Below, piece by piece: positions 8,234 to 15,865 of a stretch of DNA of 30,827 nt. Position 1 is the stretch's first letter, and every line of letters starts with the position of its first letter. The notes below the pieces were generated by a model, which saw only the letters and a list, made by a program, of their open reading frames with translations, searched no databases and was not told the DNA's origin. The DNA lies in IMG/VR virus record IMGVR_UViG_3300022187_000140, positions 1-30,827 of that record. One strand, 5' to 3'. The position numbers and the translations under genes were made by a program. This stretch comes from a virus.

Positions 8234-8436
8234 CAGACCCAATAGTGTCTATGGTTATCGCTCAGTTCAGAAGCAGGAGCAAGAGAGGAATTGAAAAGTA
8301 TAACACCACGTTAGCTGAAAATGACCTATCTTTGGTCGAGTGGCTTGAGCATGCTAAAGAAGAGGCAATGGATCAAGTTCTGTATCTAGAAAGAGCTATC
8401 AATGAAATTAGATCCAAAGAAAATAGTATTCAATAG
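8230..8436 (+). CDS. Small phage protein, 68 aa, MazG-like in look
   Basis: This helical protein reads VIAQFRSRSKRGIEKYNTT, then SLVEWLEHAKEEAMDQVLYL. The R-(S/K)-x-K-G-I-x-K-Y ... W-x-x-H-x-x-E-E-x-M-D-x-x-x-Y-L pattern recurs in small phage proteins. The EExMDxxxY helix recalls half of a MazG-type nucleotide pyrophosphatase, but a full catalytic set is not visible. It starts by ATGA overlap with the previous gene and is overlapped by the next. Confidence 0.65.
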   Translation: MTDPIVSMVIAQFRSRSKRGIEKYNTTLAENDLSLVEWLEHAKEEAMDQVLYLERAINEIRSKENSIQ

Positions 8437-8863
8437 GAAGTTGACCTTGTCAGAGGCTATAAAAGCCTACACTATATTGAATGAAACTTTGTTTTTAGAC
8501 GATCGAGATTCACACTACTACTATGTTATAATTAAAAACGAGTTTGATATATTCATCGAAACAATAAATGATGTAGAGGTTTATTGGTTTGCCAACAAGC
8601 TAGAGGTTACTGACAGACAAGCCGTGATGTGCTTATGCGAATATCCAACCTTCTGGGAAAACCTGAAGGATCACTTGTACATGTGTGGCATAAACGACTA
8701 CAAGAGGTATAGTGTGTTTACTAAGGGTGACCTAATGGGAACTGATGACAGAACTTGGGAAGAGTATATAGGAAGTGATGAGAATGATGCTATGCAGTTT
8801 TACACTGATATACTGCTGATAGACGATATAATCTCAGTGATAGAGATAGAGGATGAAGTATAA
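8402..8863 (+). CDS. Hypothetical acidic protein, 153 aa
   Basis: This is an acidic, aromatic-rich protein of 153 residues (DSHYYYVIIKNEFDIFIETI, then VMCLCEYPTFWENLKDHLYM) ending in IEIEDEV. The start at 8402 overlaps the previous gene by 35 bases, and the end overlaps the nuclease gene by 11. The family is unknown. Its position suggests an early accessory role. Confidence 0.7.
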   Translation: MKLDPKKIVFNRKLTLSEAIKAYTILNETLFLDDRDSHYYYVIIKNEFDIFIETINDVEVYWFANKLEVTDRQAVMCLCEYPTFWENLKDHLYMCGINDYKRYSVFTKGDLMGTDDRTWEEYIGSDENDAMQFYTDILLIDDIISVIEIEDEV

Positions 8864-9308
8864 AAGAAGAAAGGGTGGAAAGCAAATAACTAGATCCACC
8901 AAGGTTAAAGAGGATGGTATTGAGTTTGCCTCCAAGCTTGAGCTGTATATGTACAGAGCCCTGAAGAAGGCTAAGATAAAGAATAAGTATGAAGGTAAGA
9001 CGTTCACTATCATCAACGGCTGTGACTTTCCTATGGCATCTTTCGAAAAGACTAAGTCTAAAAAAATATTACACGACAGGGGCAATAAGAAGCTATTAGG
9101 AATTAAGTATACTCCAGACTTTATAGACGTACAAGATCCCCCACGATTCATAATAGAGACTAAGGGCAACCCAAATGAGAGCTTTCCTATACGCTGGAAG
9201 CTGTTTAAGATGCATTTAGTGAACGAGGGGATACAAACAAACCTATTTATGCCACGAAATCAAAAAGATTGTGACGAAACTATTGCAATTCTAAAAAATA
9301 TACTGTAA
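8853..9308 (+). CDS. PD-(D/E)XK endonuclease, DUF1064/resolvase-like
   Basis: This is a probable structure-specific or nicking nuclease of 151 residues. The catalytic set is visible as DGIEFASKLEL (Glu30), TPDFID (Asp89) and IETKG (Glu102, Lys104). This is the spacing seen in DUF1064 and T7 endonuclease-I-like phage nucleases. A basic N-terminus (MKYKRRKGGKQ) would aid DNA binding. It is the last gene of the rightward arm, and a strong intrinsic terminator follows 40 bases after its stop. A Holliday-junction resolvase role fits the recombination and replication genes upstream but is inferred. Confidence 0.8.
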   Translation: MKYKRRKGGKQITRSTKVKEDGIEFASKLELYMYRALKKAKIKNKYEGKTFTIINGCDFPMASFEKTKSKKILHDRGNKKLLGIKYTPDFIDVQDPPRFIIETKGNPNESFPIRWKLFKMHLVNEGIQTNLFMPRNQKDCDETIAILKNIL

Positions 9309-9348
9309 GTTTGATCTTCTCTTATTAGAGTATTCGCTTAGTTGATTC

Positions 9349-9388
9349 AAGAGGGGGCAAAATAGCTAATTGTCTCCTCTTTTTTTTG
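9349..9388 (+). terminator. Intrinsic terminator ending the rightward arm
   Basis: AAGAGGGGGCAA (9349-9360) pairs with TTGTCTCCTCTT (9370-9381) with two G-U pairs. The loop is 9 nt and a run of T follows to 9387. No matching A-run lies on the left, so it acts on rightward transcripts only. Confidence 0.9.
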
Positions 9389-9415
9389 TTATATAAAAAA
9401 GTTTTTATACTTTAG
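9386..9415 (+). promoter_or_regulatory. Bacteroidota-type promoter
   Basis: TTG at 9386-9388, exactly 19 bases, then TACTTTAG at 9408-9415. The Bacteroidota primary-sigma consensus is TTG, about 19 bases, TANNTTTG, and the second box matches 7 of 8. The -33 box overlaps the T-run of the preceding terminator. The expected start of transcription is near 9420, just ahead of the predicted small RNA. Confidence 0.65.
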
Positions 9416-9421
9416 CAGTGA

Positions 9422-9521
9422 ACATGATGGATATCGGACCAGATATCAAATTAAGAAAGAGGAGAAGTGGTTTTCATCCTCTTGGAAAAAGACCCAGTGA
9501 AGGCAGTAGCTGGGTTTTTTT
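9422..9521 (+). ncRNA. Predicted small RNA between convergent arms
   Basis: About 100 nt lie between the promoter above and a terminator. Three hairpins are visible. GATATC/GATATC (9430-9435 with 9442-9447) has the loop GGACCA. AAGAGGA/TCCTCTT (9457-9463 with 9477-9483) extends inward by GAA/TTC. The terminator stem ends the unit. A GTG-started frame from 9418 runs through the terminator and looks non-coding. The transcript start is estimated. The middle hairpin could alternatively be a second stop for leftward transcripts. Confidence 0.5.
9486..9521. terminator. Bidirectional intrinsic terminator
   Basis: ACCCAG (9492-9497) pairs with CTGGGT (9510-9515). The stem is flanked by five A on the left (9486-9490) and a run of T on the right, so it can stop transcripts from both directions. 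On the minus strand it directly follows the stop codon of the last virion gene. On the plus strand it closes the predicted small RNA. Confidence 0.85.
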
Positions 9522-12500
9522 ATTTACGCATTTGAGATGGAATGTACGTGTATTCATCTTGACTAAAAATAAATGCTATATCCCTACGGCTAAATCCATT
9601 CTTTTTAAGAATATTAACTATTTCACCTGAGTCAACACCCAGCCTTATTGCTGACTTCGTTAATTCTTGAGCTTCTTTAATCATTTGAGAGTAATCTCTA
9701 TTCACTTCTTCATAAGCTTTCTCCAACTCCACCTCAGTTGATTTTTCATTGTATCTAACTCTATTATATCTACCGTTGAGGGAAGTTTTTCTGTCTTTTA
9801 AATCTAAAGTTCTAAATAAATATGATTTTTCAACATCTACATTAACTGGTCTGTATCCAGTAAAAGCTCCGATTCCTTCATTAAAAACATTATTATCATT
9901 ACCACTCGCCGCTTTTTGTAATCTTATTGCAGTTGTTATTGTCCCAGGCTGTATAAGTTTAAAAAACTGTCCCATAATCTTTTCACCCTTTTCTCCTGTC
10001 GTTAATTTTTTATCATTATAAACTAGAAAAGCTTCAGAAGCGAAAGCAGCAACTAAGTCTTTTCCTAAAAATGGCTCTCCTAAAGCTGTAAGCTTATCTA
10101 TAAGAAGCGGAGTCGAATCATTATCATTTCTACCTGCTATTATTAACTCAGACAAGAATGAGTGCGGATCATTCGCTGTTAGGTCTATAAAAGTGTATTT
10201 TCCAGGTTCTTTGTTTGTAATAGCAATTAAAGAGTCTTGAGACCACGGGGCAACAAACCTTCTTAAATCGTTATATTCTTCTGATTCATCATCTTCTCCT
10301 CCAAATATTAAAGATTGTGCTGCAAGACCAAGTTGAGTAGCTAGGGTCACTTTTAGCCCAGTATACAGTCCAGCACTCGCAAGTCTTTTGGCTCCTATTT
10401 TAGCAACCTCTTTGTTCTTAGAATTTACTTCGTTCAATGCTATTTTGTAAGTATTGAAGGCAGTTCTAATTGACTCTGCTCTAAAGGAAACAAATGCACC
10501 TAGTAATGGACTCCTACCAAGTCTTTTGATTATAGGAGGTACTCTATCATACGTTGGATATGTATTTTTTACAATCTCAGACACAACCTCATTCACCTTA
10601 TCAGATTCAGATTTAGTTAAATCTGCCTTATCTTTTCCAAATAGAGCTTTAGCGTATCTCTGTTTTTCTATACCATAAGCCATAATCTTAAAGAAATCAT
10701 CTTCTGACTGATAAGCATCATTTAGTTTGTCAACCAAAGCTTTTGTCGTTTTTCCAGCTTTACTTTCTCTGAATAAATCTGATAGTTTTTCCTTTTTAGA
10801 AGCTACATTTCTAGCCTGATCTATAATGGTTCTCTTATATGCTTCTTCAAAAGATTTATCTCCATACATTGATGTAATGTCTCCAAGTGTTGTGCTTTGT
10901 TTTACGATACCAAGAGAAATAAGTTCATCCAAATAAGCTCTTTGCTCTTCGTTTGTTTTTCCATAAAATTCTTTTATTACTAAATCCGAAGCATTTTTAA
11001 CTTCATTCCAGTCTAAATGACCATTCATTAAAAGAAAACCATGATTACCTAAAATATTCTTCGCATGAGTAGCAATAGAACCAACGGTTTTACCCCACTT
11101 GATAGCACTACTAAATTTTACAAACGCATCATAATGACTATTCATCGGATTTGGCATCTCGAATGTTTTTGCAATCTCTGGTGTAGTCCAAAGCCCAGCA
11201 AGCTCTGGATAAGCCTCATTCCCTTCTTTCACTATTTGAACTGTATTTTCTTTAGTAGGGCTTTTAGTAAAAAAAGTATTTGATCCTGATTCTGCTATTT
11301 TTCTTTGAAACTGATAATTGAATAATAACATTGCTTGTTTAGCAACAGTGTTTTGAAAGTTTTCTAATGGGTTAGTCACCTCACCCATTAAAGCACGAAG
11401 CTCTGCTGGAACATCCTTTCTTCTTCTAAGAATATCCTTGTCTATTCTACCATCCTTACCTTTTACAATATACTTATTGTCTTCAGCCTTGTTTAGTATC
11501 TCATTGATTTGGTTTTCTACCTCTTGTTCAGAAACAGTTCTACCTTCTTGTATAGCTTGTCTTCTGAAAAATCTTCTAGCATTTTCTTTTACTTCTTCAG
11601 AAACTTTATTTGCCCAGTTTGAGTCACTAAATAACCTATAGCTTCTGTTCACATAAGAACCTATGTTTTTTTCTACTGCCTCTATACCTTCTTTAGTATC
11701 AAAATATCCACTTTCAATAATCATATTAGAAAGACCGTCTATTTCAGCTCTCATTCTTCCAGCAATAGCTAACATATCATCAGATAAAGTGCTTTTGTTT
11801 GGATCAAGCTCACCTCTAAAAACCTGATCAAATTCTTTCATTACAGAATCTCTTTGATCTTTTGGTATTTTTTTAAGAACAGAATTGATATCTTTTCTCA
11901 TTCGATCAATTCTATTTTGATACATTCTTATATTAGAATCTCTTTTTTGTCTCTCTCTGTATATTACATCTGGCTGTAATCCTTGAGCTGTAAAGTGTAT
12001 AGTAGCTTGTTTTTTAAGAAAATCTTTAGTCTTCTTAAACGCATCCAATATCCTTCCTGTAATGCCTTCTGTTTTTGGCTCTACAGCAGCTTCTTTTTCT
12101 GCCCTTGCTTGCTCTTCTGCTTGCTCAACTTTCTCCTCTACTTCAACCTCTTCTTGTTTAGCAACTTGCTCTTGAGCAACCTCAATAGGCTCTCTGACTG
12201 GTTTTAATTTAGATGGATCTTGTTTAGCGATAGCTTCTATTTGAGAATCAGTTCCGTCAAACCCAGTAATCTCTATAAATCTATTTCTAAGTTCAGTAAC
12301 TATATCAGCTTCCTTTGGTTTTGTATTGGACTTATACTTAGGGTCCATCATAATGTCGAAAAGCTGTTCTGGAGACACTTCTACTCCAGATACCTCAGAA
12401 ACCTCTAAAGCAATTTTATCTAAAGGAGTGGACTTTTGTCCTTTTCTACCCTTAAGATACCCTAAAATTTTTGGCAAATCGTCCTTGCCTCCGTAGTATC

Positions 12501-14433
12501 GTTCTATGCTTTTACTGCTAACTTTATAATTTCCAACAAAAGCCTCAATAACAGGATCTAAAATACTTTCTTCTTGTTTTTTCTTTTGATATTCTAAAGC
12601 TATTTCTTGAGCGTTTTCACTTTCACTTGCAATCAATTGAGATTGTTCTGACTCAGATATTTCTTGAGTCATTCCTTCAAAAGCTGACTTTCCAGTTGTA
12701 TAGTCTCTCTGAGATATTAGTTCGTTTTGAGCTTTTCGAGAAGCCTCCTTCGATCTTTTCTTCCCAGTCTTTATATCGATAGCTTCTTGAAACTTACCAG
12801 ACTCATCTACTGTAACCTGTGTTTGATTTGAGGTTTGATAAGTTAATTTTGGTTCTAACTCAGGTTTAACTAATTCTTCTGCAACAGTCTCTTCAGTAGT
12901 TTCTGGTTCCGCAACCTCTTCAACAGCCTCTTCTTGTTGCACTTTAGAAAGCTGATCGTTAATTTCATCTATTCTTTTCTTTTGAGGAGCAACTAAGTTT
13001 TCATCTTTTCCTTCAATAGTGTCTTCAAGTTTCTTTTTTTCTCTAATTAAAGATATAGCTTGTTGTTCTTTTTCACTTGTTAAATTAAGACCATCAGTTG
13101 ATTTCGCTAATGCAGAAACCTCCTCAAAAGATTTTAACCTACTATCAGCGTCCTCTCTTGTGATTACTCTTTGGTTTACTTTTTCGTCAAGATCAAACTT
13201 TAATATTTCTTTTGCTCCCTTTGATCTAGCAATGTTAGTTTGATCTGAGTCAACCTCATTCATGTTATTTGAAGAAAACGCATCTGAAATGCTTTTGTAT
13301 TTTGAACCTTGAACTTTTTTGTTTATAGCTCTTTTTCTAGCGTTCTGACCAACAACATCTATTCCAATTTTTCCTCCAGAAAGCGGACCAGTGGCAAAAC
13401 CACCAACTAAAAATGTATCTGAAAACTCATATAATGTATCATCAAAAGCCTTTTTATCTCCAGATATTGCATAATCAGCAAGCTTGCTAACCAAAAGACT
13501 TCCAGTTTCAGAAGCTCCTTCTTCTACAAAATCAATTCCAAATTCTTTAGCAAACTTACCTATAGACTTTACAACATAATCCTTACCCTTTCCAGCCAAT
13601 GATGTGAAAAACTTACCACCTATTTTTTTTGTTACAAGATCAGCTAATCCCTCCGCTGTACCGCTTGCTATTGAGTTTGCTGATGTTTTTAACCCAAGAC
13701 CATAACCTCTATCTTGCAGTTCTTTACTTTTCTGAGCTGCTGATCCAAGACCTATAGATGCTATACCAATTCCTGGAACAAATGCTTGAACCATTGATGG
13801 AATCGCTCCTACTGCCTCATTAAATAACCTTCCTGTTGCTTGACCTAAATCTCCTGCAGCAATATCCTCAGTTATTGAAGTGTCAAATTTATCGAATGAA
13901 GATCTTATTTTTTCAGCTTCTTTAGTGTATTCTTCTGAAAGTTTCGTTATACCTCCCATTTGAGAGCCCCCTGGTCCCATAGGCATGCTTCCTAAAAAAG
14001 CATCTCTTTCCTCTCGGGTCATTGAGTTTAACTGATCCTTAAAGCCTGAGTCAAAAGCACCTATGACTGTGGCGACCTGTTCTGTTATAAAGGCAGGTAT
14101 TCTCGAGATAGATGCCATAACATCATTAGCTCCAGCAGAAAATCTATCGTCAAATTCGTAATCTCCTTTATCGTACTTTTCTTCAGCTATTGTTTTGCTG
14201 ATATCCGAAGAATCCATTACTTGTTGTGAAACCAAATCGGTCTCTTCTAAAGTAGAATCTTGATTTTCTTTTTTTTTTATATCATCCGCTTCCTCAGTTA
14301 TTAACTGATCTTTATATACTGGATATTTCTGTATGATTTTGTTCACAAGAACATCGTTATCCATATCATTATACTGCGGATACTTCGATTTTATTTTTTT
14401 AGCTAACTGATCTCTCGTTATCTTGTCTTGCAT
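9520..14433 (-). CDS. Giant internal virion / DNA-ejection protein
   Basis: This encodes 1637 residues, the last gene of the virion operon. Near the N-terminus are two copies of a KYPxY motif (KSKYPQYNDMDNDVLVNKI, then QKYPVYKDQL). Gly/Ala-rich hydrophobic stretches follow (AVGAIPSMVQAFVPGIGIAS). The middle carries long Glu-rich low-complexity segments. The C-terminal half is helical, with another hydrophobic segment (LATQLGLAAQSLIFGG). Size, position and hydrophobic stretches resemble T7 gp16-type ejection proteins that help DNA cross the envelope. No lytic-transglycosylase motif was seen. The ATG at 14433, four bases after the upstream stop, is preferred over an in-frame ATG at 14502 that overlaps that gene. 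Confidence 0.7.
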   Translation of the reverse strand: MQDKITRDQLAKKIKSKYPQYNDMDNDVLVNKIIQKYPVYKDQLITEEADDIKKKENQDSTLEETDLVSQQVMDSSDISKTIAEEKYDKGDYEFDDRFSAGANDVMASISRIPAFITEQVATVIGAFDSGFKDQLNSMTREERDAFLGSMPMGPGGSQMGGITKLSEEYTKEAEKIRSSFDKFDTSITEDIAAGDLGQATGRLFNEAVGAIPSMVQAFVPGIGIASIGLGSAAQKSKELQDRGYGLGLKTSANSIASGTAEGLADLVTKKIGGKFFTSLAGKGKDYVVKSIGKFAKEFGIDFVEEGASETGSLLVSKLADYAISGDKKAFDDTLYEFSDTFLVGGFATGPLSGGKIGIDVVGQNARKRAINKKVQGSKYKSISDAFSSNNMNEVDSDQTNIARSKGAKEILKFDLDEKVNQRVITREDADSRLKSFEEVSALAKSTDGLNLTSEKEQQAISLIREKKKLEDTIEGKDENLVAPQKKRIDEINDQLSKVQQEEAVEEVAEPETTEETVAEELVKPELEPKLTYQTSNQTQVTVDESGKFQEAIDIKTGKKRSKEASRKAQNELISQRDYTTGKSAFEGMTQEISESEQSQLIASESENAQEIALEYQKKKQEESILDPVIEAFVGNYKVSSKSIERYYGGKDDLPKILGYLKGRKGQKSTPLDKIALEVSEVSGVEVSPEQLFDIMMDPKYKSNTKPKEADIVTELRNRFIEITGFDGTDSQIEAIAKQDPSKLKPVREPIEVAQEQVAKQEEVEVEEKVEQAEEQARAEKEAAVEPKTEGITGRILDAFKKTKDFLKKQATIHFTAQGLQPDVIYRERQKRDSNIRMYQNRIDRMRKDINSVLKKIPKDQRDSVMKEFDQVFRGELDPNKSTLSDDMLAIAGRMRAEIDGLSNMIIESGYFDTKEGIEAVEKNIGSYVNRSYRLFSDSNWANKVSEEVKENARRFFRRQAIQEGRTVSEQEVENQINEILNKAEDNKYIVKGKDGRIDKDILRRRKDVPAELRALMGEVTNPLENFQNTVAKQAMLLFNYQFQRKIAESGSNTFFTKSPTKENTVQIVKEGNEAYPELAGLWTTPEIAKTFEMPNPMNSHYDAFVKFSSAIKWGKTVGSIATHAKNILGNHGFLLMNGHLDWNEVKNASDLVIKEFYGKTNEEQRAYLDELISLGIVKQSTTLGDITSMYGDKSFEEAYKRTIIDQARNVASKKEKLSDLFRESKAGKTTKALVDKLNDAYQSEDDFFKIMAYGIEKQRYAKALFGKDKADLTKSESDKVNEVVSEIVKNTYPTYDRVPPIIKRLGRSPLLGAFVSFRAESIRTAFNTYKIALNEVNSKNKEVAKIGAKRLASAGLYTGLKVTLATQLGLAAQSLIFGGEDDESEEYNDLRRFVAPWSQDSLIAITNKEPGKYTFIDLTANDPHSFLSELIIAGRNDNDSTPLLIDKLTALGEPFLGKDLVAAFASEAFLVYNDKKLTTGEKGEKIMGQFFKLIQPGTITTAIRLQKAASGNDNNVFNEGIGAFTGYRPVNVDVEKSYLFRTLDLKDRKTSLNGRYNRVRYNEKSTEVELEKAYEEVNRDYSQMIKEAQELTKSAIRLGVDSGEIVNILKKNGFSRRDIAFIFSQDEYTYIPSQMRK

Positions 14434-14437
14434 AATT

Positions 14438-15865
14438 TTAGTTAATTCCCAAAGGATCTTCTTCATTAGACTCGCCTCCTTCATTAAGTTCTTGGCTTTC
14501 AATATCAGTCAAAAGAGGTATGCCTATTTTTGTTCTTATTTGATTTATACTAAGCCTATCTAGTAGTGGAATTGTTTTTGTAACAGTTTGCTTCTGTATG
14601 CCAGTAATAGTATCTCCAACCTCAGTAGTGTATCCAACCACAGCAACATGATCTCCATTTGCCTTTTGTCGATACCCGATGACATTAACATCTGCATCAG
14701 CAGGAACTCCTTGTTGCGCTACTTTTGTAAATCCAGATCCTTGAAATTGTTTTAAAGAAACTGGTTTTTTTACAGTATATTCATACATTTCACCCTCACC
14801 AACTTCTTTTCCGCTTTGTTCATTGTAGTAGGAAACGTTGTAATTTCTAGAATCTTTATCTGATTTACTAAGTTGTCTTTCTCTTAATGCAGTGTTTCTA
14901 AGCTTTATATTTATATTTTGTGCAGCTACATCATCCTCAGACTCTCTTAAAAGATAATCAGACTTAACTTTTTCTTTTAAATAATCTGTGGTTTCTTTAA
15001 AAACCCTATCATAATCTTTTATTTTTCCAAAAGAATCGGTAGTAAACTTCACTCCAGCTCTTGAGGCTGCATCATAAAGCTCATCAGGATCATTGTAAAG
15101 AGTTTCTTTTGCGTAATTTTCTATATAATTGTTCTGTTCTGGAGTAAATTTACCACCTCTATCTCTAAATGATTTCAACACCGTCCCTCCTTTAAAGTAC
15201 TGATTCGCCTCTTTGTCTACGCTAAATATGTTTCTTGAAACTTCGTTAAAATCAAATGCATCTCTATACTCTGTGAACTTGCCAAACTTATCAAAAGGAG
15301 TCACTTCTACACGAGCATTGCCTTCTTCATCCTCTCCTTGAGTAAAAAACGATAAGTTCATGTTCTCATCCATATCTACACCTGCAAACCCGTATAAATT
15401 ATTTAATGACTCTAAATTTTTTCTTGAAGTTAAAGAGGCGGCATCTCCTTTTTCTCTAACAGTATCTACATAGCCTGATATTTTAGAAAAATCCTTTGCA
15501 ACTTTTCTAGATTGACCAATCATTTTAGCCATTCTAGTGGCATATTCGCCCTCAGAAATAGACCCTTCATTAAACAATGCGTTATTAGCATCAGCTACTT
15601 GCTTTATCTTAGTAGATATCTTTCCAGCAACCATATCTACATTGTCAAGACCAACATTATCAAAACCTGAATATATTTCAGGACCATATAATTCTAGCAT
15701 TTTTAACTGAAGTTGATCTCTTTCCTTTTTTTTATTTACTTTTTCTTGAGCTTTTTCTTTAGCTACTTGTTCTACTTTTTTAGAAATAACGCTAAAATCT
15801 GCTAAAGATACTCCTTGAGATGCTCTTTGAAGTCCGCTGTAATAAGCACTTGATTGTTTTGCCAT
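14438..15865 (-). CDS. Probable internal virion protein, 475 aa
   Basis: This is a predominantly helical, charged protein. A Lys/Glu-rich coiled-coil-like segment at residues 28-55 (KKVEQVAKEKAQEKVNKKKE) is followed by long helical repeats. The C-terminal third looks more beta-rich (VNVIGYRQKANGDHVAVVGY), and the tail is acidic (GGESNEEDPLGIN). It lies between two other probable ejection proteins, and its ATG overlaps the previous stop. By position it corresponds to T7 gp15-like internal core proteins. Sequence similarity cannot be claimed. Confidence 0.6.
   Translation of the reverse strand: MAKQSSAYYSGLQRASQGVSLADFSVISKKVEQVAKEKAQEKVNKKKERDQLQLKMLELYGPEIYSGFDNVGLDNVDMVAGKISTKIKQVADANNALFNEGSISEGEYATRMAKMIGQSRKVAKDFSKISGYVDTVREKGDAASLTSRKNLESLNNLYGFAGVDMDENMNLSFFTQGEDEEGNARVEVTPFDKFGKFTEYRDAFDFNEVSRNIFSVDKEANQYFKGGTVLKSFRDRGGKFTPEQNNYIENYAKETLYNDPDELYDAASRAGVKFTTDSFGKIKDYDRVFKETTDYLKEKVKSDYLLRESEDDVAAQNINIKLRNTALRERQLSKSDKDSRNYNVSYYNEQSGKEVGEGEMYEYTVKKPVSLKQFQGSGFTKVAQQGVPADADVNVIGYRQKANGDHVAVVGYTTEVGDTITGIQKQTVTKTIPLLDRLSINQIRTKIGIPLLTDIESQELNEGGESNEEDPLGIN

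What the first reader, a model, noticed from the sequence alone, without database searches (positions are those of the whole stretch)
9386..9521. Independent small RNA gene at the convergent junction
A TTG-N19-TACTTTAG promoter sits directly behind the rightward terminator. Within 100 nt it leads through two hairpins to a second terminator, with no convincing reading frame. A promoter placed between two terminators argues for a deliberate short transcript. It might regulate host or late phage mRNA, or act as a decoy. An alternative is that the hairpins serve only as stops for leftward transcription.
Basis: partly seen in the sequence, partly recalled or inferred. Interest (0 to 1): 0.75.

Follow-up and report, generated by a model that had tools for sequence, protein, structure and literature searches.

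The report
Capped small RNA gene in phage
Between two gene blocks of an uncultured virus related to phages of marine Flavobacteria there is what looks like a genuine small RNA gene, and its last hairpin carries a 14-letter cap that unrelated viruses also put on their own small RNA, tRNA and tmRNA genes, so it may mark a so far undescribed kind of RNA end.

Summary
Window 9386-9521 has a TTG-N19-TACTTTAG box behind the resolvase terminator, then two hairpins and a second terminator; the RNA folds far better than shuffles (z -4.6). The promoter match alone is not rare (P about 0.06), and the sequences of H1/H2 and the loops GGACCA and GTGGTT are not conserved. Relatives make the case. The promoter recurs in L014 and, more loosely, in L025; a start motif GAACATNNNGG and the three-hairpin layout also recur; a syntenic relative (L012) lacks the whole unit. 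The last hairpin carries an invariant cap, GU-GAA-GRY-AGUA-RC, on stems that differ in sequence but still pair (7 of 9 pairs change on both sides). The same capped hairpin plus U-run ends permuted tmRNA genes, a tRNA region and other short RNAs in unrelated phage contigs. It is practically absent from bacterial chromosomes (one real case in a scan of 84,980 genomes). No Rfam family and no paper found here describes it. Best reading: a roughly 100-nt phage noncoding RNA gene, sometimes carried in the resolvase 3'UTR, ending in a specialised terminator hairpin, probably a protein-binding or end-protecting module. Its target is unknown; there are no expression data.

The parts
9350..9387 (+). intrinsic terminator of the resolvase (rightward) operon, upstream border; uncapped
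   Evidence: stem AGAGGGGGCAA/TTGTCTCCTCT + T8; scores only 14.5 bits with the cap model R1; a similar terminator stands alone in L010, L012, L013
9386..9415 (+). Bacteroidota-type promoter TTG-N19-TACTTTAG (-33/-7)
   Evidence: aligns with L014 almost unchanged, and with L025 as TTTG...TAACTTTAC; consensus TTTG/TAnnTTTG in PMC7366714; not rare by itself
9420..9430 (+). conserved 5' motif GAACATGATGG at or near the expected transcription start
   Evidence: GAACATGATGG in L014, AAACATGATGG in L011, GAACATTACGGAC in L025, GAACATTGCGGAC in L086, AAACATAACGGCAC in L092
9430..9447 (+). hairpin H1 (GATATC-GGACCA-GATATC); stem sequence not conserved, a hairpin at this place is kept in L014 and L011
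9457..9483 (+). hairpin H2 (AAGAGGA.../TCCTCTT); hairpin kept in L014 and L011, sequence not
9486..9521 (+). terminal hairpin with conserved cap GU-GAA-GGC-AGUA-GC (9497-9510) and U-run: rightward terminator
   Evidence: model R1 gives one strong hit in the window, 9490-9525, 48.4 bits, E 2.9e-10
8853..9308 (+). neighbouring gene: DUF1064 / Holliday junction resolvase-like
   Evidence: PF06356, phrog_190
9520..14502 (-). neighbouring convergent gene: 1660-aa virion structural protein
   Evidence: phrog_22602

Best explanation
A small noncoding RNA gene of about 100 nt, read rightward by the host-type RNA polymerase from the promoter at 9386-9415, starting near 9420 and ending at the capped terminator at about 9515-9521. 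It behaves as an exchangeable cassette between T-tracts. The terminal hairpin is a specialised terminator: a variable stem closed by an invariant cap (GU-GAA-GRY-AGUA-RC) that probably folds into a bulged-G (sarcin-ricin-like) GAA/AGUA loop and is bound by a protein or protects the 3' end, because phages attach the same cap to other RNA genes (sRNA, tmRNA, tRNA). Shown by sequence: conserved layout, cap, paired-stem variation, presence/absence, association with RNA genes. Inferred: transcription, start site, the 3D form of the cap, protein binding, and any regulatory target; the conserved 5' single-stranded motif is the likeliest effector part.
For: Fold z-scores -4.6 (window), -5.0 (L011), -3.2 (L014), -4.1 and -3.3 (L025a, b). 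Cap recurs in 12 distinct phage loci plus one bacterial contig, with stems of 8 to 14 pairs, while chance sites of the same pattern have mostly 5 pairs or fewer. Covariation 0.903 against 0.299 +/- 0.045 shuffled and at most 0.298 slid; 7 of 9 pairs change on both sides. One strong copy per phage record. Context: after permuted tmRNA genes in L081 and L094, after a tRNA-Val in L085, short RNAs behind promoter-like boxes in window, L014, L092, L088/L096 and, with a longer gap, L086. A promoter-plus-5'-motif pattern searched without the cap in 3.6 Mb of held DNA hits only L025 and L092, both next to a capped hairpin (pattern A). L012 has homologous flanks (resolvase 89%, left gene 66% nt) but no element. 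Same pattern scan of bacterial genomes: 1 of 13 hits had a real stem.
Against: No transcript data. Promoter not rare on its own. Element is patchy (at least 2 gains or losses forced on the resolvase tree, 4 on the best tree) and lacks a promoter in L011 and L028. Members were chosen by pattern and stem length, which inflates the pairing counts. No complementarity of the RNA to the window beyond shuffles.
Confidence: 0.62

Rival explanations
1. Only a terminator: a second, capped intrinsic terminator that insulates the convergent junction; the promoter-like box and the two upstream hairpins are incidental.
For: L028 keeps the capped hairpin behind the resolvase without an evident promoter or 5' motif; the capped hairpin is at the end of every member; promoter match not rare.
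Against: Promoter and 5' motif shared with L014 and L025; the same unit layout lies between non-convergent genes in L086; the resolvase already has its own terminator; ordinary phage terminators, including the one at 9350, lack the cap.
Confidence: 0.2
2. A protein- or RNA-polymerase-recognition element: the cap is a site for a phage- or host-encoded factor acting on termination or antitermination of any transcript, not a part of an RNA effector.
For: Cap sequence invariant while stems vary; found on sRNA, tRNA, tmRNA and mRNA ends; usually one strong copy per phage.
Against: A general signal of a phage polymerase would be expected at several places per genome; the 5' motif and hairpin layout are then unexplained.
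Confidence: 0.1
3. Stops for leftward (late) transcription only.
For: Lies just behind the stop of the leftward 1660-aa gene; in the window A5 precedes the stem, giving T5 on the leftward strand.
Against: In L014, L011, L025 and L028 the leftward strand has no T-run after the stem, and in L081, L085, L086 and L094 the hairpin ends co-directional RNA genes or lies between co-directional genes.
Confidence: 0.04
4. A short coding gene (leader peptide) starting at ATGATG.
For: ATGATG present in window, L014 and L011.
Against: Frames are unrelated in length and sequence, and L025, L086 and L092 have no ATG in the motif.
Confidence: 0.02

Closest known systems
GibS and other intergenic sRNAs of Bacteroides thetaiotaomicron (PMC7366714)
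   Same: own promoter of TTTG/TAnnTTTG type in the host phylum, conserved unpaired 5' end, two middle hairpins, linear stretch, intrinsic terminator, about 100-145 nt
   Different: no sequence relation claimed; phage-borne; terminal hairpin has an invariant cap; no target known
Phage two-piece (permuted) tmRNA genes (RF04321, PMC11915505; phage Melnitz, PMC9004378)
   Same: in L081 and L094 the permuted tmRNA gene is followed by the same capped terminator
Bulged-G (sarcin-ricin / loop E) RNA motif
   Same: GAA on one strand, AGUA on the other
   Different: here as a hairpin cap with a 3-nt GRY link, order GAA then AGUA; 3D form not tested; known to me from general knowledge
Ordinary intrinsic terminators
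   Same: GC stem plus U-run
   Different: loop of 10 nt almost fixed in sequence and first two pairs fixed, stems free to vary

Membership tests
Independent bacterial-type small RNA gene | own promoter | tested here: inconclusive
   present and shared with L014 and L025, not rare by itself, absent in L011 and L028
Independent bacterial-type small RNA gene | intrinsic terminator at the 3' end | tested here: met
Independent bacterial-type small RNA gene | no conserved reading frame | tested here: met
   frames differ or are absent among L014, L011, L025, L086, L092
Independent bacterial-type small RNA gene | discrete transcript detected | not testable with these tools
   no expression data for this uncultured phage
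Antisense (trans-pairing) sRNA | complementarity to a target beyond chance | tested here: not met
   longest complementary run to the window 11 nt, shuffles 9-16; host mRNAs not tested
Permuted tmRNA (RF04321) | match to the covariance model | tested here: not met
   no Rfam match in the window; matches only in L081, L094
Any Rfam 15 family | match at gathering score | tested here: not met
   also no match to the capped hairpins of L070, L075, L079, L080 at E up to 1
Bulged-G / sarcin-ricin motif | GAA/AGUA strands closed by a pair on the stem side | tested here: met
   invariant in 13 of 13; U-G or U-A pair below it; selection by pattern noted
Bulged-G / sarcin-ricin motif | characteristic non-canonical 3D geometry | not testable with these tools
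   needs probing or a structure

The most novel reading that the evidence does not exclude
The cap is a phage-specific RNA module (GU-GAA-GRY-AGUA-RC on a free stem plus U-run), recognised by a protein or polymerase, that phages of Bacteroidota append to stable noncoding RNAs (small RNA, tRNA, tmRNA); the window RNA belongs to an undescribed family defined by this end and by the 5' motif GAACATNNNGG.
Probability: 0.35. Interest if true: 0.75.

Novelty: new variant of a known kind. Interest (0 to 1): 0.62.

Why it matters
Phage small RNAs in Bacteroidota are hardly known, and these bacteria mostly lack the usual RNA chaperone Hfq (general knowledge). A conserved cap shared by sRNA, tRNA and tmRNA ends of unrelated phages would point to a common factor acting on phage RNA ends, and it gives a searchable signature (model R1) for finding further phage RNA genes.

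Tried and rejected
Antisense pairing of the RNA to the phage: 11-nt run, as in shuffles. Rfam and ARAGORN: nothing in the window. Rarity of the promoter string: not significant. Direct DNA similarity of 8400-10500 in named phages: none. Cap in isolates (Calle_1, phi38:1, Panino, elemo, P12024L, Gundel, Freya, phi13:2, phi14:2, phi17:2, phi10:1, cr4_1, cr131_1): only weak, uncapped terminators among those looked at. Cap in bacteria: R1 hits only its own seed in 395 Bacteroidota genomes; the bare cap string is no commoner than its reversed control in 299 Flavobacteriales genomes. First idea that the window is a crAss-like phage: dropped; its nearest named relatives are Panino, Elemovirus and Callevirus-type phages. 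L162 and probably L270 and L260 hits rejected as coding or chance. Literature searches for the cap letters and for phage small RNA in Bacteroidota gave nothing relevant.

Full report
What is there. The window is a 30,827-base virus record. Rightward replication genes end with a DUF1064/Holliday-junction-resolvase-like gene (8853-9308) and a leftward 1660-aa virion protein starts its 3' end at 9520. Nearest named relatives are phages of marine Flavobacteriia and similar: Maribacter phage Panino, Flavobacterium elemo phages, Cellulophaga phages. Between the two genes lie the resolvase terminator (9350-9387), the TTG-N19-TACTTTAG box (9386-9415), GAACATGATGG (9420-9430), hairpins H1 and H2, and a strong hairpin with a U-run (9486-9521). 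The RNA 9420-9521 folds at -33.7 kcal/mol, z -4.59.

Is it more than chance. The promoter string alone is not (P about 0.06 in this intergenic stretch). Comparison decides. Of the resolvase relatives in the viral collection, L014 has the promoter and 5' motif almost letter for letter, followed by two hairpins of different sequence and the same terminal hairpin; L011 has the 5' motif, two other hairpins and the same terminal hairpin but no promoter and no earlier terminator; L025 has a promoter plus 5' motif followed by a different terminator, and then a second short unit with the capped hairpin; L028 has only the capped hairpin. L012, with a homologous resolvase and a homologous leftward gene, has one terminator and nothing else. 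Presence is patchy on the resolvase tree. So the unit is gained or lost as a block, bounded in the window by T-tracts.

The cap. The terminal hairpins of window, L011, L014, L025 and L028 share the loop and its two closing pairs. Pattern scans of the viral collection and of 84,980 bacterial and archaeal genomes, filtered by stem pairing, separate two classes: chance sites with mostly up to 5 pairs (a few with 6), and real stem-loops with 8-14 pairs. The real ones are window, L011, L014, L025, L028, L081, L085, L086, L088/L096, L092, L094, L267 and one Flavobacteriales MAG contig, L113. The relaxed scan did not ask for G-C at the second pair, yet the accepted hits of that scan keep it; a coding hit (L162) does not. 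In the alignment of 13, the letters G-U-G-A-A-G, A-G-U-A and C are invariant, and 7 of 9 stem pairs change on both sides; covariation 0.903 against 0.299 +/- 0.045 in shuffles and at most 0.298 when slid. Selection on stem length inflates these counts, so the bimodality and the bacterial control are the safer evidence: with near-identical patterns, 12 of 19 viral stretches had a real stem against 1 of 13 in the much larger bacterial collection. A wider GAA-N(2 to 9)-AGUA search of held DNA with stem and U-run found 14 with N3 (including L162), one with N5 (L345, another phage of the clade) and none for five scrambled control motifs, in loci that had been collected with the motif.

Where the cap sits. 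In L081 and L094 it follows permuted tmRNA genes (RF04321); in L085 a tRNA-Val; in L092 and L088/L096 a short unit behind a promoter-like TAnnTTT box, and in L086 a short unit with such a box further upstream; in L267 it follows an uncharacterised structured stretch. Model R1 finds one strong copy per such record, none above 25.9 bits elsewhere in those records, and no strong copy in thirteen named phages. Terminators looked at in Cellulophaga phages phi17:2, phi13:2 and phi14:2 lack the cap. In 395 Bacteroidota genomes R1 hits only its own seed.

How it most likely works. Inference: host RNA polymerase with the Bacteroidota primary sigma factor (consensus TTTG/TAnnTTTG, PMC7366714) starts near 9420; the transcript keeps the unpaired GAACAUGAUGG at its 5' end, folds H1 and H2, and terminates at the capped hairpin. 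GAA/AGUA is the signature of the bulged-G motif (general knowledge), so the cap is probably a rigid structured loop, suited to protein binding or to resisting 3' exonucleases. That H1 and H2 change freely while the 5' motif and cap stay argues that the effector parts are the ends, or that the middle is tuned to different hosts. No target was found in the phage itself; host targets were not tested.

Known kinds. It works like an intergenic sRNA such as GibS (PMC7366714) in layout; the cap is not in Rfam at the thresholds used and was not found in the literature searched. I therefore file it as a new variant of a known kind: a phage noncoding RNA with a specialised, shared terminator. What is missing is any expression evidence.

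Limits.

Noticed in passing
L081:2308-2661 and L094 (reverse strand) 2424-2724: Phage contigs with permuted tmRNA genes whose possible tag reads after GGCAAAACAA are very short (GCA AAA CAA TAA; GCA AAA CAA TTT CAA TGA); not verified.
   Followed up: partly
L086 near 4464 and L092 near 3665 (reverse strands): Repeated CTCTTTAAYATAGTA words lie next to the capped RNA in both contigs.
   Followed up: no
L025:5542-5750: Two small RNA units in tandem: the first with promoter and GAACATTACGGAC but an uncapped terminator, the second with the cap.
   Followed up: partly
L345 (G021:27375-27412): Variant cap GAA-GATAT-AGTA on a 10-pair stem with U-run, at another place of a related phage genome.
   Followed up: partly
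L113:317-352: The only capped hairpin found in a bacterial contig (Flavobacteriales MAG), behind a small glycine-rich ORF.
   Followed up: partly
L267 (reverse strand), about 100 nt before the capped hairpin at 1689-1724: A structured, uncharacterised non-coding stretch (GGCGGT ... ACCGCC with inner hairpins) precedes the cap.
   Followed up: no
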